Shown here one piece after another: positions 6,233 to 37,241 of a stretch of DNA of 40,933 bases. The stretch comes from a virus. The position numbers were made by a program, and so were the translations under genes. Numbering within the stretch: position 1 is the first letter of the stretch; every line of letters starts with the position of its first letter. Under the pieces are notes generated by a model. The model was not told the origin of the DNA. It saw only the letters and a program-made list of their open reading frames with translations, and searched no databases. Location: positions 1-40,933 of the IMG/VR virus record IMGVR_UViG_3300047468_000081; one strand, 5' to 3'.

Positions 6233-6571
6233 TTAGGCCGTCACGATCAGGTTGATGTCGTATTCTTGGCCAACCGTGAGGCCGGGTATTTCAATGATGG
6301 ACAGCACCCCGCTCGCCCACTTCCAGCGGACACCAGACGTCGCGATGTACTCGGTTCCGGATCGCGATTTTGCGCGCCCGCACGTGACACCACGCGGCAG
6401 GAAGTCGCAGCCGACTTGCAGCGGCGGGGCGTATATCTTCGACAGCTCGATTACGCGCGAGCTTCCAGCTTCATTCATGGCTGCTTCCACGTCACGGAAC
6501 GCTGCCGCGACATCGGGGTCTTTCAGTGAAACGCCAAAGCGAAAGGCGCGCGCCCTCCTGCCGGTTCCCAT
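6233..6571 (-). CDS. Small conserved-looking tail-region protein (112 aa)
   Basis: The protein starts MGTGRRARAFRFGVS and ends with a beta-rich segment (SIIEIPGLTVGQEYDINLIV). Its start overlaps the stop of the 853-aa tail hub gene (TGATG), so the two are translationally coupled. A predicted helical middle (DVAAAFRDVEAAMNEAG) precedes the beta-rich half. There is no signal peptide and no recognisable catalytic site. The position between the hub and the ejection proteins suggests a small tail accessory such as a plug or needle-like part, but nothing in the sequence proves this. Confidence 0.8.
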   Translation of the reverse strand: MGTGRRARAFRFGVSLKDPDVAAAFRDVEAAMNEAGSSRVIELSKIYAPPLQVGCDFLPRGVTCGRAKSRSGTEYIATSGVRWKWASGVLSIIEIPGLTVGQEYDINLIVTA

Positions 6572-9132
6572 CAGCGCACCAGCCTTGCGAATGAGATGGT
6601 TTCAAACTGGACGGCTACGCCGATCATCTCGAACAGACTCGTTGATGCCGCGATGTCCATCCCGAACGTGAATGCGGGCGCAATGGCTGGCGCATCGCAC
6701 GGGACAGCAAACCCGAACCGCTTTGCGTTCACCGTGTCTTCTGAGTTCAGGGTTACCGTTGAATAAGCGACCGAACCGTTCATGAAGATTTGCTGAGCGA
6801 CAACGTCAGCAGCGCTCACGATGAGAGGGTCTGCCGTCTGCCAATGCTTCTGCTCAAACGGACTCTCGCCGCAGATCGGTTGGAAGTGTATGCGGCTGAC
6901 AGGAAGCGTCCCGCCCGACGTCTGCGGGGCGCTGATCTGCGTTCCCGCAAGCACGCACAAAATGCCGTCGCGTCGGAAGTAGGCGCCATGGTGGGCCGCA
7001 GAAGCAGACGGTTTGTCGGTGACCCACGTCTTAGTCACGATGTTGTAGCGATAAATGCTGGTCGTCGAGCTGCTGTGGTCAAACAGAATGACTTCGTTGT
7101 TCGCTTCGTCCGCTTCCATCCAGACGCACGTTGACGTACTGACCACGTACGCAGCGCCGGGCGCTACCATGCGGCCCGGAAGCAGATCGCCGATCACACC
7201 CTCAGTTATCGGCATCACGAGACCGTCTGACGTGATGGCCACGACGCCGCGTGACGTGCGCGCATAGACGACATCGCGCAGCACGCACCACGCGCGAGGC
7301 CCTGTCAGAATGAGCGTTTCGTCGACCGGGTCCATACGCCAGTCGAACCCATCACCCGCGCTGCCGCCGCTGCCGCTGAGTCGCTTCACGCCTTTTGTGG
7401 TGAAGAAGATCACGGCGTCCTTGGTCGGCGCAATCGCGAGGATCTTTGCGCCGCCGCCGATCCGCTCGTAGTTCGCGAGCGGCACGCGCCACGGCTGATG
7501 CTGCTCGGACACGCACCAGCCGTCCTCTTGCTCGACGGGTGACACGGTAAGAGCGGTTTCCGCGGCTTCGATGCGCGGCAGCGGCGGGTCGAACCGGTTG
7601 CCGTGCGTTGCGCGGATCGTGAAGGTGGGCATGCCCGCTCTCGTGCCGCTCATGTTTTCGGAGCGGAACGTGACGAGCGCGATTGACTGACGGGACAGGT
7701 CATCGCCGGGCGGCGCGTAGTTCTCGATGCCATACACGCGCATCGATCTTTGCGTGCCGAGGTAGCTGATCTCGAAACCAAACTTTCCGGAGTCCGTTGC
7801 GAGGTATTCCGTGCCGTTTATCTCGATCACATCCGACAGGTACACGATCTGATTGGTTGCGTTGGATGTAGGGGCCGGAGTCACCGTGAAGGTACTCACG
7901 CCGACCGATTGGATACGCACTCCGCCGCCGGGCAGCCCCGGACCCAGTGTCATTCGCATACCGACGCAGAGCTTCGACGGTAGATCCGGGTTTACAGCTG
8001 TAATCGTTGCGTTGCCGTTCGTGTAGTTGACGATCCCGAGACGCAGTCCAAAGTTGTTGTCAGGTAGTGGGTTCGTCGCGTGGGTGCCTACCGAGTGCCA
8101 GCCGTTGACGGGTCGCAGCGAGAGCTGCGCAGGCTGCTTGATGTTGCCGTAAAACGTGTATCCCTTGAACTGCGCCATGCATGCAGCTGCGGGCGGCGGA
8201 TACGTCGTTCCCTGAACGCCCTGGAATCCATCGTTTGTGTAAAGCGCGTCGCCAAGCGCGTCGTCAGTCGATCGATCCACAAAGGGAACGTTCCAGTTGC
8301 CGACGTCACCAGACGTCAGCTTGATCGAGCAAACGCGGAAGTAGTCGGCGCCGAGACTCGTGAACGCAAAGTCCTTTTCTTGCGGCTGCGTGCGGGTTCT
8401 GTAGATCTCGACGAAGTCACCGGCCCGCACGAACTCGTTGTGAAAAGACAGTGTCCCACCCACGTTTGCAGATGGATAGTCGGCTTCGGCGCCCTGGATC
8501 CAAGTGACGTAGATCGACGCGCACGGCGCGCTTACGTACTCGGCGCCGCTTAGACCTTTCCTACGGATGATCGCGGTGTACGCCGCGCCATAGCCCCAAG
8601 GGATCGCGCCGCCTTCGACCTCCAACACGTCGGCTCCGGCCGAGATGAACCCGATCGGCGCGCGGATGCCCGCGTTGCTGACCATTGCGCCAGAGCCAGA
8701 CGGCGGGTCTGCGCTGCGCTCGAAACACACGACGCCGCAATCCATGTTCACGTACTGGTAGCCAGCAGCTTCGACAGCCCAAACGCCGCCGTCGTCGCGC
8801 GGGTAGAAATACGAGCCGTACTCAGCAAGGATCGATGCGCCAGGGTAGTAGCCGCCCAGGGACGGGCTGTTCCATGCGCAGTACCAGTCGTTTAGGGCGT
8901 TCTCGTAGACCACAAGAGACCATGCGTTGCTGCCGCTCGGAAGCATCCAGGCACGCATGCCCGACGACAGAGGCACCGAAGCGGCGAACGCCCACTGTCG
9001 CGCGCGCTCGATCTTGTATGGGCTGCGGATGTAGATGTTTTCGGCCACCGACATGGCGCCGGGCGGCAGCGACACGAGCTTTCCGGGCTGCGTGACGAGT
9101 CCTAACGGCTGCAAGATGAGCTGCTGCGGCAT
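6571..9132 (-). CDS. Large tail hub / nozzle-like protein (853 aa)
   Basis: The product begins MPQQLILQPLGLVTQPGKL and continues with PPGAMSVAENIYIRSPYKIERARQ. This opening (short leader, PPGAMxxAENxxIR, then arg-rich turn) is typical of podovirus tail proteins that form the tube or nozzle below the portal adaptor, such as tail tubular protein B or P22 gp10-like stabilising proteins. The rest is beta-rich with many aromatic and Gly residues, compatible with a beta-propeller or barrel hub. Its start overlaps the adaptor stop by one base and its end overlaps the 112-aa gene, so the three form a coupled tail module. Homology is judged by eye; a tail-fibre hub is the main alternative. Confidence 0.78.
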   Translation of the reverse strand: MPQQLILQPLGLVTQPGKLVSLPPGAMSVAENIYIRSPYKIERARQWAFAASVPLSSGMRAWMLPSGSNAWSLVVYENALNDWYCAWNSPSLGGYYPGASILAEYGSYFYPRDDGGVWAVEAAGYQYVNMDCGVVCFERSADPPSGSGAMVSNAGIRAPIGFISAGADVLEVEGGAIPWGYGAAYTAIIRRKGLSGAEYVSAPCASIYVTWIQGAEADYPSANVGGTLSFHNEFVRAGDFVEIYRTRTQPQEKDFAFTSLGADYFRVCSIKLTSGDVGNWNVPFVDRSTDDALGDALYTNDGFQGVQGTTYPPPAAACMAQFKGYTFYGNIKQPAQLSLRPVNGWHSVGTHATNPLPDNNFGLRLGIVNYTNGNATITAVNPDLPSKLCVGMRMTLGPGLPGGGVRIQSVGVSTFTVTPAPTSNATNQIVYLSDVIEINGTEYLATDSGKFGFEISYLGTQRSMRVYGIENYAPPGDDLSRQSIALVTFRSENMSGTRAGMPTFTIRATHGNRFDPPLPRIEAAETALTVSPVEQEDGWCVSEQHQPWRVPLANYERIGGGAKILAIAPTKDAVIFFTTKGVKRLSGSGGSAGDGFDWRMDPVDETLILTGPRAWCVLRDVVYARTSRGVVAITSDGLVMPITEGVIGDLLPGRMVAPGAAYVVSTSTCVWMEADEANNEVILFDHSSSTTSIYRYNIVTKTWVTDKPSASAAHHGAYFRRDGILCVLAGTQISAPQTSGGTLPVSRIHFQPICGESPFEQKHWQTADPLIVSAADVVAQQIFMNGSVAYSTVTLNSEDTVNAKRFGFAVPCDAPAIAPAFTFGMDIAASTSLFEMIGVAVQFETISFARLVR

Positions 9133-14069: not shown

Positions 14070-16309
14070 GGGCCTTCTCCTGGTCTAGCGGTATTCGGGG
14101 GCGTTGCGGGTTCGGGTAGCCCCGTGCCGGCCGCTGCGGCCGCGGGGGATGGCGACACGCTGCCGCCCTTGTCTGCGCTCTGCTGCGACTGCGGGCCGCC
14201 GCCTTGGAGCGCTGGCGGGGCTCCTTGCGGCTGTCCTTGGGTTTGCTGCTGCGGCTCGCCGGGCATGGGCGGCGGCTGCGTCTGCATCCCGAGTAACGCG
14301 GTCGGCGAGTTTGGGATCGGCGGCGGGAGCGGCACGCCAAGCGGCATGGCCATGCGGGGGTCGATGCCCTGCCAGCCGAGTAGGTGATCGTAGATGTGTT
14401 GGAGCCCAGCGCCGACAGCCGCGCGCTGCTCCGGCGTGTCGGGCAGGGTCATCAGCTTCTCGACGACGCCCCAGTGCTTCGGAAGGTGCTTGAACGGGTT
14501 GTCACCCGCACCCACCGTGACCGGCTTGCCGTCTTGCAGCTGCTCGTTTTCCCACACGAGACGCAGATCGGACGCGCTGTTCGTGTCGAACAGACCCGAC
14601 CAGTCACCCGTGTTGATGCCGCGGATCGTCGCGTCGATGCGCTCGGGTGGCTGCTCTTTGATGGCCTCCCACAGCTCGAAGCGCCCGGCCTGGCTTCGCA
14701 TCATCGGGCTTGCTGTCTCGACTTGGACGCGCGCCACGCCTTTCAGCGATTCCTTGCGGAACTCCATCAGGTATGGCTGCTCGCTCTTGCCGGCGACCTC
14801 GATCAGGAATTTCTCGGTCGCGTTGTCGCGCGTCAGCTCGAGCACGATGTTGCCGACCTGGCGGCGGAAGTCATCGAACCCGGCCTGAATGCTGTTCTGG
14901 TACTCGTAGGTGATCGAGTGGTAGAGCGCGGCCATGCGGCCGCTGGTGATGTTGGGGTCTGACTTGCCACGAGACGTCGCATACAGACCGCTCACGCTGT
15001 CCATGCGTTCGAGGAGATGCCCGAAGAACCACTTCACGGACTCGGGCAACTGCGCGTAGTTCATCGCCACGGGCGGGTCAGTGCCAGGTGTCTTGGCGAT
15101 GGCGACCAGACCCTTCGCGATCTGCTTGAAGTCGTAGTCGGCGCCTTTGTCGAACACCATGACCTGGCGTCCGAACGTGCTGAGGTTCGTGGCGCTGTCG
15201 CTCGACAGTTGATCCAGCATTTGCTGAATGGCGAGCAGGTCCCACGGGTTCGCGTAGCCGAGCGCCGAGAAAAAGAACCGGTCGGGGCACAGCTCGGCGA
15301 TTGGTACGCCCTTCTTACGTGGGCAGCCACCGTGCCATAGGATCACGTCATCGAGAAACGCGAGGTAGAGCCCATCAGGAAGTGCGGGGCACTTCTCGTG
15401 ATAGAGGTGCTCGATCATGCACGTGTCTTCGTCGATCGCTTCACGTGTCGACCAGCCAAGCAACGCCTCGGGTAGGTACTCGTCGAAGTCTTTGCACTCG
15501 AGGATATCGTCGGCCAGGTCGGGCAGCTTGGCCGCTAGATCGTACTTGTTGACGTACTCACGCACGATGCACCAGCGCATCTTGGGGTTGCGCGTGTCGC
15601 GCACGAGATCCCAAGGTCCGAGGATCGCGCCAGTGGGAGCGCCCGACATCTCTTTGACCTCGATCTCCGCGTCCTGCTTCGCAGTGATCGGCTGCCCCGT
15701 CATCTCGTCGATCATCGGCGAGCCGTCCGGGTTCGTGGCTGGCACGTCGATTTGCAGGATCTGACCAGGGTTCTCCTTGTCAGGGATCGGGCGCATCACC
15801 TCCATCTCGTCGCCCGACGTCGGGTCCCAGTGGATGTGGGCGTAGCCCATGCCCCCGGTCCCCATGTACTCGAGCGCGCGCCGCTCGCCGGCGTCTCCGA
15901 CAGCGCCGGTATAGAGGTAGTGCACGGCGTTGTTGCTCGTGCCGATGCTGGCAAGCGCGCTGTAGTCGCTGTTTCGCGTGAGGCACTGGAATGCCGCGCG
16001 CTGCCCCTGCGCCATGCTGTTCAGCTGCCGCTGGTAGCTGCGTACTTCATTGATGCGGAAGCGCGTGAACTGACCCTCGGGGCCAACCTGCGCCGTGCTC
16101 TGCGTCGCGAAGTCGCCGGGCCGGTTGGGTGACTGCCCGAAGTACTGCGCGATCGCGGTGCGCCACATCCAGACGAGCCCGGATGCGGTGCATTCTTGGA
16201 AGTAGCGTTGGGTGAGCCGTTTGGCATGCGTGATAACTTCGGAGTGCTCACGCGCGGCCCAATACGTCTTATCACTGTCCGCTGGGTTTACTGACTGCGG
16301 TGCGAACAT
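14066..16309 (-). CDS. Portal protein (747 aa)
   Basis: A large protein directly after the terminase/RyR group and before the scaffold. It starts MFAPQSVNPADSDKTYWAA. The N-terminal half is mixed alpha/beta; the middle has the long helices expected of a portal stem and wing, and an NITSGRMAALYHSITYEYQ segment typical of podoviral portals. The last 80 residues are a disordered Pro/Gln/Gly tail (PPPMPGEPQQQTQGQ). Its length is close to P22 portal (725 aa). The dodecameric portal forms the DNA entry vertex, docks terminase during packaging and later holds the tail. Only a weak ribosome site precedes the ATG; the upstream gene ends two bases before it. Confidence 0.88.
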   Translation of the reverse strand: MFAPQSVNPADSDKTYWAAREHSEVITHAKRLTQRYFQECTASGLVWMWRTAIAQYFGQSPNRPGDFATQSTAQVGPEGQFTRFRINEVRSYQRQLNSMAQGQRAAFQCLTRNSDYSALASIGTSNNAVHYLYTGAVGDAGERRALEYMGTGGMGYAHIHWDPTSGDEMEVMRPIPDKENPGQILQIDVPATNPDGSPMIDEMTGQPITAKQDAEIEVKEMSGAPTGAILGPWDLVRDTRNPKMRWCIVREYVNKYDLAAKLPDLADDILECKDFDEYLPEALLGWSTREAIDEDTCMIEHLYHEKCPALPDGLYLAFLDDVILWHGGCPRKKGVPIAELCPDRFFFSALGYANPWDLLAIQQMLDQLSSDSATNLSTFGRQVMVFDKGADYDFKQIAKGLVAIAKTPGTDPPVAMNYAQLPESVKWFFGHLLERMDSVSGLYATSRGKSDPNITSGRMAALYHSITYEYQNSIQAGFDDFRRQVGNIVLELTRDNATEKFLIEVAGKSEQPYLMEFRKESLKGVARVQVETASPMMRSQAGRFELWEAIKEQPPERIDATIRGINTGDWSGLFDTNSASDLRLVWENEQLQDGKPVTVGAGDNPFKHLPKHWGVVEKLMTLPDTPEQRAAVGAGLQHIYDHLLGWQGIDPRMAMPLGVPLPPPIPNSPTALLGMQTQPPPMPGEPQQQTQGQPQGAPPALQGGGPQSQQSADKGGSVSPSPAAAAAGTGLPEPATPPNTARPGEGP

Positions 16310-28086: not shown

Positions 28087-29700
28087 TTACGCGTGCGCAA
28101 CGTTGGGCGCAACAGGCTCGCTCACCACAACCGGGCGACCCTTTGCCCACGCGAGCATTTTACCCTTCGTGACTGCGTCAGGCTTCCAACCGTAGCGCGC
28201 GAGGCCATCGATAAGCGTCGACGCATCGCGGAGTGAGACGTTCGTAGGCAAGCCCGCCTTGCGCAGCAGCTTCGCTTGTTTGAGCGTGCACAAGCCGAGC
28301 GCCTTTCGCTCGCGAAGGTGCGCGTGCAGCTTGTCGGCGTCTGCGACTGTGATCGGCTCGTTGATCGTGAATCCCTTGTCACGCAGCATCGCCACGTCTG
28401 CGTCATGCGCGAGCACACCATCGATCACACGCTCCTCGCCCAAGATGTCGTCGAGCGACACGTGATTCCAAACGTACTGCGACTGTACTTGTTTGATGCG
28501 CCGCTCCTCGGCTTTCTCCGCGTCGACCTCGGCCGTAGCCGTGAGGATGAGTTCATCCATCTCCGCGCAGTTGAGCGAGAGCTGGCGAGCCCGCTCGCGC
28601 ACGTCATCGGGCAGGTCGCCGGCGAGCACATCGAACGGCGCCGACAGCCGCAGACCCGCAGTCCGCTCGGGAATGAAGTCGAGAATGAGGCACGCCGTCT
28701 TGCCCTCGGCGAGCCGTGTACCTCGGCCGATCATTTGCGTGATCAGCGCGCGAGACTTGGTCGGGCGCGCGAGCGCGATGCATGCCGTCTCGGGAGCGTC
28801 GAAACCCTCTGTGAGCAGCATCGCATTACACACAACCTGCGTCTCACGCGAGCGGTAACGCGCGAGCACGGCGGCGCGGTCCTCCTGCTTCATGCCGCCG
28901 TCGACCGACTCGGCTGCGAGGCCATAGCCACACAGGATCTCCGCCATGCGCTTCGACTGCTCGACGCCGACGCAGAAGCAGAGCGTCTGACGTAGCCCGA
29001 TCTGCTCCGACATCGGCAGCGCCATCTGATGCAATACCTCATCGCGGATCAACTCGGCTTGCAGCTCGTTTTGCGCGAAGTCGCCCGCACGCGTTTTGAT
29101 GCTCGACAGGTCGAGCGCGCCGACGCGCACTGACCGCAGCTCGAGTGGCACCAGGTAGCCGCCCTTGATGCCGTCTTTGATGTCGAACCGGTACGCGCAG
29201 CGCTCGAAGATCGAGCCGAGGCCGAGGCCGTCTAACCGGTCCGGCGTCGCAGTCACCCCGAGCACCAGCGCGTTCGGGAACCGGTCGAGGATGTTCCGGT
29301 AGCTCTTGGCCGCCGTGTGGTGCGCTTCGTCGATCACAATGAGGCTAAACGCCCCAGAGTCCCAGGCTTCCAGCCGCTTGCCTTGGAGCGTCTGTAAGCC
29401 TCCCAGAACCACGTCGACCTCATCCCGAGCGAAGGCACCGCCCGCCCGCTCGCCGGCCAGCTCCGTGGCGCAGCGGAGCCCGAACCGAGCCAGGGTCGCC
29501 CCGGCTTGCTCAAGCAGCTCGCGTCGGTGGGCCACGACGAGTACTCGACCCGCCGCGCGCTGAACCAGCTCAGCGGCGATGTACGAAAAGATCACAGTTT
29601 TCCCACACCCGGTGGCCAGCACTACCAGTTGGGAACGGTGTTTCTGATATCCGACAGCCAGCTCATTTACTGCGCATTCTTGGTACGGTCTAAGTTTCAT
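28087..29700 (-). CDS. SF2 DEAD/DEAH-like helicase (537 aa)
   Basis: Clear helicase motifs are visible: RPYQ near the N-terminus, Walker A ATGCGKT at 29-35, DEAH (IVIDEAHHTA) at 124-127, TATPDR at 150-155 and QMIGRGTR at 322-329. This is the arrangement of the restriction-helicase/RecG-like SF2 family with a C-terminal domain of about 180 residues. It would use ATP to unwind or remodel nucleic acid in replication or recombination. AAGG lies before the ATG, and the repeat array begins about 50 bases upstream. A restriction-type endonuclease domain is not seen, so a lone helicase is preferred. Confidence 0.93.
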   Translation of the reverse strand: MKLRPYQECAVNELAVGYQKHRSQLVVLATGCGKTVIFSYIAAELVQRAAGRVLVVAHRRELLEQAGATLARFGLRCATELAGERAGGAFARDEVDVVLGGLQTLQGKRLEAWDSGAFSLIVIDEAHHTAAKSYRNILDRFPNALVLGVTATPDRLDGLGLGSIFERCAYRFDIKDGIKGGYLVPLELRSVRVGALDLSSIKTRAGDFAQNELQAELIRDEVLHQMALPMSEQIGLRQTLCFCVGVEQSKRMAEILCGYGLAAESVDGGMKQEDRAAVLARYRSRETQVVCNAMLLTEGFDAPETACIALARPTKSRALITQMIGRGTRLAEGKTACLILDFIPERTAGLRLSAPFDVLAGDLPDDVRERARQLSLNCAEMDELILTATAEVDAEKAEERRIKQVQSQYVWNHVSLDDILGEERVIDGVLAHDADVAMLRDKGFTINEPITVADADKLHAHLRERKALGLCTLKQAKLLRKAGLPTNVSLRDASTLIDGLARYGWKPDAVTKGKMLAWAKGRPVVVSEPVAPNVAHA

Positions 29701-29749: not shown

Positions 29750-30031
29750 CGGTTCCCGATCGGTTCCCGCCGCCCCCTACTACGTAGGGGGGCGGCAAAT
29801 ACGGGAACCGCTCGGAAACCGCTTGTTTTGTAGGCGGTCCCTGCGGTTCCCAAATTTCGGGAACCGATCGGGAACCGATCGGGAACCGTTGGGAACCGCT
29901 GCCATTCTAGGACGTACGATCGTCGCCAAACCCTCCACAACCGGTTCCCATCGGTTCCCGTCACCCAAATTGGAGCGGTTCCCATCGGTTCCCTTTTGTA
30001 CGCCATCAGCGGCGGGAACCGATCGGGACCG
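29750..30031. repeat. GGGAACCG repeat array (candidate origin)
   Basis: Thirteen exact copies of GGGAACCG occur, six forward (starting 29803, 29859, 29870, 29881, 29891, 30014) and seven as CGGTTCCC (29750, 29761, 29844, 29942, 29952, 29976, 29986). Variants appear near 29813, 29835 and 30025. Many neighbours are 10 or 11 bases apart, so sites would face one side of the helix. A strong hairpin (29769-29796, GCCG-CCCCCTAC-tac-GTAGGGGG-g-CGGC) lies inside. The array sits in a 429-bp gene-free gap between the two helicase genes and looks like iterons of a replication origin or a dense array for a DNA-binding protein. Confidence 0.85.
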
Positions 30032-30064
30032 GCTTTCGAGCGCCGCCATCAGCTGCGTAAATCG

Positions 30065-30082
30065 CATTACGTAGACGTAATG
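30065..30082. promoter_or_regulatory. 18-bp palindrome with TTACG-N4-CGTAA core
   Basis: CATTACGT-AG-ACGTAATG is a perfect palindrome with a 2-base centre. It lies between the DnaB-like gene and the repeat array. The core TTACG-N4-CGTAA recurs at 32871-32884 and, slightly altered, at 23576-23590, so it may be an operator shared by three control regions. Confidence 0.55.
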
Positions 30083-30129
30083 TGAATGGGGGCAAGTGAT
30101 CAAGGGGCGTGCGGCCTTTTTCTCACACG

Positions 30130-31767
30130 TTATTCGGAAGCGGCGGCCGCGGCGGCGACTGCTGGACGGATGTACCCGCCCACGTTGGCTAGCTCGCCTG
30201 ACTCGAACATGTCGTCTATGACGCGCAACACGTCGGTCTTCTTACCTCCGACCACACGGTGCACGGCGCTCTTCGAGCTGCACTGATTGGTCGCGCACGC
30301 GGTCTTGATCTGCTCTCGAAGCAGGTCGTCGCGGCGATTCTCGCGGGCGGCTCGCGCGCGCGAAACCCGCTCGCTGCGCTCGTCCTCCATGCTCCGCTGC
30401 TTCGCCTCGACGTCGAGCGCTTCGCTTACCTGCTGCGTGTCATCGAACCGGATGTGAAACGTGGGCTTGTTCCAGCCGAACCGGTTCTTTGCGACCTCGA
30501 GTTCATAGATGCCCGGCAGCCCTGGCACAAAGCGCATGCCGATCAGCAGCTTGGCGGCGTACTCGATTGCGCCGCTTTCCTTCGAAGCACTGAGCGCGCT
30601 CGCGTTCGCTTTGGGGTCGCGAGACGCGTAGCCGCTGCGCGCCATCTCACTGATCGCGATGACCGTTACACCGCTCTTAGCGGTCGCTTTCAGCGTGCGG
30701 ACAAGCGCGTCCATGCGGTCGCGGCGAGTCTCGTGCAGCTCGGAAGCTTCGCAAGGTGCGGTCTGCAAGCTGTCGACGATCAGGACCGGTGGTCGCCCCG
30801 TCTGTACCGCAAGCCAACGGACCACGCGCGCCGCGTGCTCCACCGTGGCCATCTCGTTGTCAGGCATCGAGTCCGGGTCGACGAAAGCCAAAGAGCGGCC
30901 CACCACACTTTCGGCGTAGCGCGCGCGCGCCGCATGTCCGATATCCCCGCCGCCCTCGAAAAGCTGACGGGAAACGCCGGCGCGCTGTGCCATTCGCGAA
31001 AGAATGCCTCGCGACTCTTCATCGATCGCGAGATAGACGCACGCACAACCAGCCAGCTCCATGGAATCAAACCACCATGTAGCGAGCGATGTTTTGCCTG
31101 CACCTGGAGCCGCAGCGAGCACCACGAATGCGCCATGCGGTATCCCGCCACCCGTGGCCTCATCAAGCGTTGCAAACCCAGTTGCATGTCGAATACCGCT
31201 AAACCCTGCATCACATGCTCCAATCGCTTCGTGCATCAGTAGGCAAGTCGGCGGGCGCGGCGAGCCTTCCGCCTCTTGCTCGCGCTCGTCAGCTGCGTCG
31301 ATGTGCTGGCGAGCTTCCGAACGGTTGCCTTCGTCGAGCGCGACCTTCGCGCGCTTCGTGAACTCGTCGGCGAGCTGGCGATCGCGCTCGCGCCGTAGCA
31401 GCTCGAACAATCGAGTCGCGCCGTCTCCGCTCACCTCATACAGATCGAACGTCAGCTCAGTGTCTGACTCGCTCGGGTCGAGCGGGCCCATGATCTTCGA
31501 GAGCGAGCTTCGATAGCCGCCTAGCGCCGCTTCAAGCTCGGCTTGGATCGGCATGCGATCCGACTGGTCGCGCAGCAGCACGATCGTTTCGAATAGCCGT
31601 TGCTCATCAGCGCCGGTAAAGATCTCTGACGTGAGCCCCGAATCGCGGAACAGCGGGAGCACATCGTTGCGCAGCCATAAGCTGCGGAGCGCGACGTGCT
31701 GCAAACGCATGTAAGTGTCAGTCGATGCGGGTCGTTGGCGTGGCGCGGACAAGCGTGTTACCGTCAA
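30130..31767 (-). CDS. DnaB/RecA-like replicative helicase (545 aa)
   Basis: The start is TTG at 31767 with AGGAG six bases upstream. The N-terminal 190 residues are helical. The RecA-type core contains the Walker A segment AAPGAGKTS (around 219-227), VLIVDSLQ as Walker B (328-335) and a LDEATGGGIPHG entry loop just before the core, typical of DnaB/RadA-like phage helicases. The C-terminus carries a winged-helix-like stretch (QIKTACATNQCSSKSAVHRV) and an Ala-rich tail. It would unwind DNA ahead of host polymerase. A separate primase domain was not recognised. The origin-like array follows downstream of its stop. Confidence 0.87.
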   Translation of the reverse strand: MTVTRLSAPRQRPASTDTYMRLQHVALRSLWLRNDVLPLFRDSGLTSEIFTGADEQRLFETIVLLRDQSDRMPIQAELEAALGGYRSSLSKIMGPLDPSESDTELTFDLYEVSGDGATRLFELLRRERDRQLADEFTKRAKVALDEGNRSEARQHIDAADEREQEAEGSPRPPTCLLMHEAIGACDAGFSGIRHATGFATLDEATGGGIPHGAFVVLAAAPGAGKTSLATWWFDSMELAGCACVYLAIDEESRGILSRMAQRAGVSRQLFEGGGDIGHAARARYAESVVGRSLAFVDPDSMPDNEMATVEHAARVVRWLAVQTGRPPVLIVDSLQTAPCEASELHETRRDRMDALVRTLKATAKSGVTVIAISEMARSGYASRDPKANASALSASKESGAIEYAAKLLIGMRFVPGLPGIYELEVAKNRFGWNKPTFHIRFDDTQQVSEALDVEAKQRSMEDERSERVSRARAARENRRDDLLREQIKTACATNQCSSKSAVHRVVGGKKTDVLRVIDDMFESGELANVGGYIRPAVAAAAAASE

Positions 31768-32906: not shown

Positions 32907-33200
32907 GTGAACAAGAGACGTGAGCGACCCGAGCGCGCAGTACCGCTCGTGAGCGCCAAGCTTTCGGAATCGGCACGGATACGAAAGGCGGCGATGGATT
33001 TTGCCGACAGCTTCCACGCTGCGATGCGCCGGTGCGCGCTTCACCCGGATCACCCTGTGCCTGATCACGCGCAGGATGATGCGGAGGATGCGATCGCCTT
33101 CATGCGCAAGGCACAACTGATCAGGGAATCGGAATCGGATAACAGCAATGGAACCAGCACCGCAGAGGAAACCAGTGACACACAAGAGCAACCCCAATAA
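32907..33200 (+). CDS. Hypothetical protein (97 aa)
   Basis: The start is GTG at 32907, with AAGGGG upstream. The protein begins MNKRRERPERAVPLVSAKLS, a basic N-terminus followed by helices (SARIRKAAMDFADSFHAAMR) and an acidic, Ser/Glu/Gln-rich C-terminus. It overlaps the Fis-like gene. The basic N-terminus could bind DNA. No family was recognised. Confidence 0.75.
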   Translation: MNKRRERPERAVPLVSAKLSESARIRKAAMDFADSFHAAMRRCALHPDHPVPDHAQDDAEDAIAFMRKAQLIRESESDNSNGTSTAEETSDTQEQPQ

Positions 33201-36992: not shown

Positions 36993-37241
36993 ATGACAAA
37001 ACGATCAAGGAAAGGCAGCCAAACCGAGTGCTACACCGGCGACCTCATCGCCCGCCGTCGCGTCGAGCTGCAACTCACGCAGAAGCAGCTTTACCTTTTG
37101 AGCGAGCTTCGAGGTGGCGAGAGTGTGATCTCCCAGTACGAAGGAAACCGGCGTATCCCTTCGATTTACGCGCTTCGCTCGATTGCGAGCGCTCTAGAAA
37201 CGAACATGGAAACCCTAGTCGGAACGCGGGTACCGCGGTGA
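36993..37241 (+). CDS. Xre/Cro-type HTH regulator (82 aa)
   Basis: Residues 16-75 form the classic HTH_XRE pattern: GDLIARRRVELQLTQKQLYL, then GGESVISQYEGNRRIPSIYA and LRSIASALETNM. Such proteins bind DNA as dimers and repress or activate nearby promoters. The 20-bp gap to the divergent gene holds a palindrome, and the following gene overlaps by GTGA. Size suggests a small repressor or anti-repressor rather than a CI-like protein with a protease domain. Without an integrase a lysogenic switch is not implied. Confidence 0.92.
   Translation: MTKRSRKGSQTECYTGDLIARRRVELQLTQKQLYLLSELRGGESVISQYEGNRRIPSIYALRSIASALETNMETLVGTRVPR

What the first reader, a model, noticed from the sequence alone, without database searches (positions are those of the whole stretch)
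29750..30031. Dense, helix-phased GGGAACCG array, candidate replication origin
Thirteen exact 8-mers in both orientations, many spaced 10-11 bp, fill a gene-free gap between a DnaB-like and an SF2 helicase. Such phasing is typical of iterons bound by an initiator. No initiator protein is obvious, so the binding protein may be new.
Basis: partly seen in the sequence, partly recalled or inferred. Interest (0 to 1): 0.75.

Follow-up and report, generated by a model that had tools for sequence, protein, structure and literature searches.

The report
Iteron origin bound by its helicase
A block of 13 short DNA repeats beside a phage's DNA-unwinding enzyme is most likely the phage's replication start site, and comparison with about 60 relatives indicates that the enzyme's own tail domain reads the repeats, because repeat sequence and tail change together.

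Summary
In detail: 13 exact GGGAACCG boxes in 272 bp, half of the gaps 10-11 bp. The replication-origin reading is supported, but "no obvious initiator, binder may be new" is not. The best candidate binder is the neighbouring DnaB-like helicase (30130-31767, minus strand), through a C-terminal winged-helix (wH) domain that ordinary DnaB lacks. The array begins 109 bp past its stop codon.

GGGAACC arrays recur in phages and integrated elements of many hosts, usually directly 3' of RecA-fold (DnaB/RepA-like) helicase or primase-helicase genes. Two protein families, collected without using the motif, gave the key test: the box sequence follows the wH domain, not the helicase core. In 12 DnaB-like loci every array is significant, with boxes GGGAACC, GGGTACCT, GGGACCTC, CGAACCG, CCGAAACG or GGGCAAGGT. 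In 36 non-redundant actinophage-type helicases the partial correlation of box with wH given core is 0.69; of box with core given wH it is -0.04.

Many arrays hold a GC-rich hairpin flanked by oppositely oriented boxes. SaPI Rep, SCC Cch2, P4 alpha and pRN1 share this plan with other helicase types. This is a new variant of a known kind. Binding and origin activity are inferred, not shown.

The parts
29750..30021 (.). Array of 13 exact GGGAACCG boxes in both orientations (+: 29803, 29859, 29870, 29881, 29891, 30014; -: 29750, 29761, 29844, 29942, 29952, 29976, 29986), plus a one-mismatch box at 29814. Proposed initiator-binding iterons.
   Evidence: de novo enrichment log10P -29.8
29761..29810 (.). 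GC-rich hairpin/cruciform (core CCGCCCCCTACTACGTAGGGGGGCGG) flanked by oppositely oriented boxes; proposed structural element of the origin. Its exact role (melting, priming or other) is unknown.
   Evidence: DNA fold -24 to -25 kcal/mol, z about -5; hairpins recur in related arrays: median stem 8 against 5 in controls
30130..31767 (-). DnaB-like replicative helicase, proposed self-contained initiator; its stop codon is 109 bp from the array.
   Evidence: Pfam DnaB_C 2e-15, phrog_19 2e-31; model matches solved DnaB structures
30163..30279 (-). C-terminal winged-helix domain (residues 497-535) of the DnaB-like helicase, proposed GGGAACCG-binding domain; recognition helix at residues 510-523 (30199-30240).
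   Evidence: AlphaFold2 pLDDT about 90, helix-helix-beta-hairpin; profile match to the C-termini of other array-linked helicases; covariation with the box
28087..29700 (-). SF2 helicase (phrog_16) downstream of the array; probably a replication gene but not the determinant of the array.
   Evidence: none of 80 SF2 relatives carries a GGGAACCG array

Best explanation
The array is the phage's replication origin. GGGAACCG boxes are iterons bound by the C-terminal winged-helix domain of the DnaB-like helicase encoded immediately upstream. Binding of several helicase subunits to helically phased boxes in both orientations, around a GC-rich hairpin, would position and orient helicase hexamers and nucleate melting and loading, so the helicase acts as its own origin-recognition protein. 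Shown by comparison: the array, its position 3' of RecA-fold helicases, the predicted winged helix, covariation of box with winged helix, and the recurrent hairpin. Inferred: physical binding, hexamer loading, melting, and that replication starts here.
For: 1) The array is far beyond chance. 2) GGGAACC arrays found by motif alone tend to sit next to replicative helicase/primase genes: 34 of 69 lie within 150 bp of the 3' end of an ORF of at least 400 aa, against a mean of 7 (maximum 15 in 300) for random placement, while 5' ends are at chance (7 against 6.8). Of 47 non-redundant neighbours with a 3' end at such an array, 32 hit AAA_25, 14 Prim-Pol and 3 DnaB_C. 3) Relatives of the DnaB core, found without the motif: all 12 loci (including the window) have a significant array 3' of the stop, log10P -10.7 to -30, against a minimum of -8.9 in 180 control windows. 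The box differs in step with recognition helix 3: partial Mantel r(box, helix | core) 0.43, p 0.01; r(box, core | helix) -0.17. 4) A second family, collected by core only: boxes GGGAACC, GGGAACGT, GGAAACGT, GGGCAGGT and GGACAGGT track the winged-helix class; 36 non-redundant loci, partial r(box, wH | core) 0.69, p 0.0005; r(box, core | wH) -0.04. L401 and L421 are 90% identical in the core and 45% in the wH, with boxes GGGAACC and GGAAACGT. 5) The window wH is confidently modelled and its family profile matches the C-termini of Prim-Pol/AAA_25 helicases that also have GGGAACC arrays. 6) Precedents: SaPI Rep and SCC Cch2 bind iterons 3' of their own gene through a C-terminal domain (PMC7581432); PICI origins lie 3' of rep (PMC6092414); pRN1's origin is a stem-loop 3' of a replication protein with a C-terminal winged helix (PMC4234260).
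Against: No binding or replication data. The end of the wH coding region and the array are physically adjacent, so recombination could transfer both together and create part of the correlation without binding. Relatedness is controlled only by core identity. GC skew has no inflection at the array, and there is no clear AT-rich melting region. Some arrays in the motif-selected set are not next to a recognisable helicase (22 of 83 had no ORF of at least 200 aa ending within 350 bp). Two members of the second family (L420, L384) have no array 3' of the gene, and L426 has no clear one. One simple GRK-type residue signature explains only part of the GGGAACC set (24 of 47, against 30% in shuffles).
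Confidence: 0.77

Rival explanations
1. The helicase wH does bind the array, but the site serves copy control, incompatibility, partition or autoregulation (like the second site crr of P4), and replication starts elsewhere.
For: Iterons often double as copy-control sites. The array also covers the region upstream of the SF2 gene. No skew inflection or AT-rich melting region is seen.
Against: A single array in the 40.9-kb record. The 3'-of-helicase position and the recurring hairpin match experimentally shown origins of SaPI/PICI and pRN1. Many relatives have another or no gene start directly beyond the array, so a promoter role is not the shared feature.
Confidence: 0.11
2. The array is an operator bound by a phage regulator (Xre at 36993 or Fis-like at 33148) that controls the SF2/replication operon.
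For: Helically phased boxes upstream of the SF2 start at 29700; the window encodes small DNA-binding proteins.
Against: No homologue of Fis or Xre was found in 13 array-bearing relatives (limited flanks). The box covaries with the helicase wH. Arrays sit at 3' ends of helicase genes, not at 5' ends of large genes. No promoter-like site in the region.
Confidence: 0.06
3. A host factor binds GGGAACC, and the covariation is hitchhiking of physically linked DNA during module exchange.
For: wH and array are adjacent; modular exchange is evident. GGGAACC recurs in elements of very diverse hosts.
Against: Boxes change between close relatives of one helicase family and within similar hosts, which a fixed host factor would not allow. 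The same box recurs with independently diverged wH domains (window, L291 and L293: cores 40-44% identical, helix 3 26-32%, all with GGGAACC).
Confidence: 0.06

Closest known systems
SaPI Rep / PICI pri-rep-ori replicons
   Same: Initiator helicase recognises short repeats directly 3' of its own gene through its C-terminal domain (PMC7581432, PMC6092414).
   Different: The window's helicase is DnaB-like (RecA fold), not the SaPI Rep type; PICI origins have two iteron sets flanking an AT-rich region, whereas here boxes flank a GC-rich hairpin.
SCCmec Cch2 origin
   Same: Isolated C-terminal domain binds iterons just 3' of the gene (PMC7581432).
   Different: Cch2 is not DnaB-like; its iteron is AAGTG, three copies, in contrast to 13 GGGAACCG boxes.
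Phage P4 alpha protein and its origin
   Same: A winged-helix domain in the helicase binds origin repeats (as described in PMC4234260).
   Different: P4 alpha is a primase-helicase with a different helicase domain. No sequence match between this wH and P4 structures appeared in the PDB search.
pRN1 plasmid origin
   Same: Essential stem-loop 3' of a replication protein with a C-terminal winged helix (PMC4234260).
   Different: pRN1 has an SF3 helicase and no iterons; here there are iterons plus a shorter hairpin.
PrimQH-family primase-helicases of mobile elements
   Same: RepA- or DnaB-type helicase domain followed by a C-terminal WH suggested to recognise origins (PMC5862659).
   Different: No cognate DNA site was given in the passages of that paper read here; the window's helicase is free-standing, without a primase domain.
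FtsK gamma domain with KOPS (GGGNAGGG)
   Same: RecA-fold motor with a C-terminal wH that reads polar 8-bp sites (PMC2680272 abstract; motor fold and KOPS sequence from general knowledge). FtsK gamma appears among the structural matches, but with non-significant E about 0.03.
   Different: FtsK is a dsDNA translocase and not a replication initiator; the analogy is mechanistic only.

Membership tests
Iteron-type origin 3' of an initiator helicase (SaPI/PICI/SCC plan) | Multiple short repeats immediately 3' of the replication helicase gene | tested here: met
   13 boxes from 109 bp past the stop; same in 12 of 12 loci of the DnaB-like family
Iteron-type origin 3' of an initiator helicase (SaPI/PICI/SCC plan) | Helicase has a C-terminal DNA-binding domain | tested here: met
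   Winged helix predicted with pLDDT about 90
Iteron-type origin 3' of an initiator helicase (SaPI/PICI/SCC plan) | That domain binds the repeats specifically | tested here: inconclusive
   Indirect only: box and wH covary independently of the core in two families
Iteron-type origin 3' of an initiator helicase (SaPI/PICI/SCC plan) | Region supports autonomous replication | not testable with these tools
   Needs a plasmid replication assay
SaPI/PICI replicon proper | SaPI Rep-type helicase | tested here: not met
   Helicase is DnaB-like by Pfam, PHROGs and fold
SaPI/PICI replicon proper | Two iteron sets flanking an AT-rich region | tested here: not met
   Array region 59% GC; boxes flank a GC-rich hairpin
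DnaB-type replicative helicase | DnaB_C RecA-fold domain | tested here: met
   PF03796 E 2.4e-15; fold matches DnaB structures E 1e-16 to 1e-13
P4 alpha origin-binding domain | Sequence homology of the wH to P4 alpha's C-terminal domain | tested here: inconclusive
   Profile search of PDB chains found only weak generic wH matches (best E 4e-4, a ribosomal protein) and no P4 alpha

The most novel reading that the evidence does not exclude
A very widespread, previously undescribed class of phage and integrated-element origins: DnaB/RepA-type hexameric helicases that carry their own origin-recognition winged helix, with a box 'code' (GGGAACC and its variants) that can be read from the recognition helix, and wH-plus-array modules swapped as a unit between replicons. 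Recognition and loading would then need no separate initiator.
Probability: 0.55. Interest if true: 0.75.

Novelty: new variant of a known kind. Interest (0 to 1): 0.62.

Why it matters
It would allow origins to be predicted from sequence in many phages and integrated elements whose start site is unknown. It would explain how elements with DnaB/RepA-like helicases start replication without a recognisable initiator protein, and it supplies dozens of natural helix-box pairs for working out a DNA-recognition code. The origin-recognition role of the C-terminal WH was only suggested for related primase-helicases (PMC5862659); here a specific DNA site is paired with it.

Tried and rejected
Near DNA relatives in the phage collection: none. 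Window DnaB as a single-protein query in viral contigs: no hits; the 3-sequence core alignment worked. SF2 helicase as determinant of the array: rejected, none of 80 relatives had it. Fis/Xre as binders: not supported. Known RNA element: none. Intrinsic terminator: the array hairpin lacks a T tract and was not called. GC-skew support for an origin: none. A single residue signature (G-[RK]-[KRT]) for GGGAACC binders: only partly holds. An alignment of all Prim-Pol/AAA_25 cores was too diverse to search with. Searching the genome behind L145 by handle failed twice on the server; L186 was used instead. Literature search for GGGAACC/GGTTCCC iterons found nothing relevant by title and abstract, in an open-access library only. 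Purely unidirectional 11-bp GGGAACC tandem repeats in bacterial chromosomes were set aside as probably unrelated.

Full report
OBSERVATION. The window is a whole 40,933-bp virus record with no near match to its right-hand 22.9 kb among 50,697 phage records. Thirteen exact GGGAACCG boxes lie in 29750-30021, 6 on + and 7 on -, with 1.46 expected in the entire window. Six of 12 gaps are 10-11 bp. The array lies between the 3' end of a DnaB-like gene (30130-31767, minus) and the 5' end of an SF2 helicase gene (28087-29700, minus). Portal and large-terminase genes, a single-strand binding protein, RecT, exonuclease VIII and a D12 methyltransferase complete a phage picture.

GENERALITY, MOTIF-SELECTED. 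The pattern GGGAACCG-3-GGGAACCG in viral contigs returned 38 stretches, about 18 of them dense arrays. A triple pattern found 108 stretches in bacterial and archaeal genomes and 69 in viral contigs, from Streptomyces to Acidobacteria, Planctomycetes and archaea. Many are bidirectional arrays next to a large gene. Arrays are enriched at 3' ends of ORFs of at least 400 aa (34 of 69 within 150 bp; random mean 7, maximum 15) but not at 5' ends (7 against 6.8). Among 47 non-redundant genes with a 3' end at such an array, 32 have AAA_25, 14 Prim-Pol and 3 DnaB_C domains (examples). ORF calls here are a simple length-based heuristic.

GENERALITY, NOT MOTIF-SELECTED. The core of the window helicase with two relatives found 11 loci, nine of them new contigs. 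All 12 loci, window included, have a significantly repeated box just 3' of the helicase stop (log10P -10.7 to -30; minimum of 180 control windows -8.9). The box is not always GGGAACC: it is GGGAACC or CGGAACCGA in window, L287, L288, L291, L293 and L294; GGGTACCT in L290; GGGACCTC in L289; CGAACCG in L296; CCGAAACG in L292 and L297; GGGCAAGGT in L295. The recognition helices differ correspondingly (for example GGKKTDV in the window, GGEKAFT in L296, DGT-type in both CCGAAACG loci). Box similarity follows helix-3 identity with core identity held constant (partial r 0.43, p 0.01) and not the reverse (-0.17). L291 and L290 are 84% identical in the core yet have GGGAACCG and GGGTACCT.

INDEPENDENT REPLICATE. 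A second helicase family from Streptomyces-type prophages and phages was collected by core only. Its boxes fall into classes that match the wH class: GNPRT...RK/GK helices with GGGAACC (some mixed with GGGAACGT), AGSDKV...RQNR with GGGAACGT, GGN/SDKIAEAV...RKAR with GGAAACGT, AATSK (phage mu1/6) with GGGCAGGT and AASNG with GGACAGGT. For 36 loci below 97% core identity, partial r(box, wH | core) = 0.69, p 0.0005; r(box, core | wH) = -0.04. Core identities are similar within and between classes (0.80 and 0.74), whereas wH identities are 0.71 and 0.45. Prim-Pol relatives with quite different C-termini carry other 3' repeats, such as CGCATTAG or GTGTCCA.

PROTEIN. The window helicase is modelled as a DnaB fold followed by a long helix and a winged helix with high confidence. 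A profile of three DnaB-like C-termini matches the C-termini of over twenty Prim-Pol/AAA_25 helicases with GGGAACC arrays (E 1e-5 to 0.02 within a 61-sequence set, first round). PDB searches give only generic wH matches, FtsK gamma among them at non-significant E.

DNA STRUCTURE. The window array contains a hairpin that extends into flanking, oppositely oriented boxes (DNA z about -5). In ten further loci z ranges from -3.3 to -6.5. Over 47 non-redundant arrays the longest perfect stem has median 8 against 5 in control stretches; inverted boxes themselves contribute to some of these stems. A common order in helicase sense is <<<< hairpin >>.

MECHANISM. Best-supported: the helicase recognises its origin through its C-terminal wH, with inverted boxes orienting hexamers around the hairpin. 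This parallels SaPI Rep, SCC Cch2 and pRN1, with a RecA-fold helicase instead of their helicase types. Origin recognition by such WH domains was suggested for PrimQH primase-helicases, without a DNA site in the passages read. Binding, loading, melting and initiation are inference.

CAVEATS. wH and array are neighbours, so co-transfer contributes to their correlation; recurrence of GGGAACC with independently diverged wH domains argues for function. Skew and base composition give no support for an origin. The literature library is open-access only. The window's host is unknown.

Noticed in passing
L377 (DQ372923.1) 6500-6650; record about 14190-14340: Streptomyces phage mu1/6 has an unannotated GGGCAGGT array with hairpin overlapping the 3' end of its helicase gene gp21: a culturable model for this origin type.
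   Followed up: partly
L310-L376, 3' of the Prim-Pol helicase gene: Prim-Pol helicases with a different C-terminal region carry other repeats 3' of the gene (CGCATTAG, GCATTACC, GTGTCCA), so the 3'-array plan is wider than the GGGAACC type.
   Followed up: partly
L287, L290, L292, L295, L297 downstream of the array: A gene beginning like 'VIVGLDQASRSGWGIA' lies just beyond the array in several relatives; it looks like a RuvC-type resolvase (not tested).
   Followed up: no
L051, L048, L019, L039 (SF2 relatives): Other dense short-repeat arrays occur near relatives of the SF2 helicase (GGGTGAAA x15, CGCGAACC x11, CAGGGACA x9, GTGTCAAA x7); not examined for neighbouring initiators.
   Followed up: no
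L153 6517-7951 (Methanocella MAG): A GGGAACC array sits at the 3' end of a gene that looks like a Schlafen/RecG-C-type protein with a C-terminal wHTH, rather than a helicase; possibly a regulator using the same box.
   Followed up: no
L124, L159, L177, L193 and others: Purely unidirectional tandem GGGAACC repeats occur in unrelated chromosomes and archaeal MAGs, often without an obvious adjacent helicase; probably a different kind of repeat.
   Followed up: no
window 30050-30085: An extra inverted repeat (ATTACGT-AG-ACGTAAT) in a 48% GC stretch lies between the DnaB-like stop and the first box; a possible melting or regulatory element.
   Followed up: no
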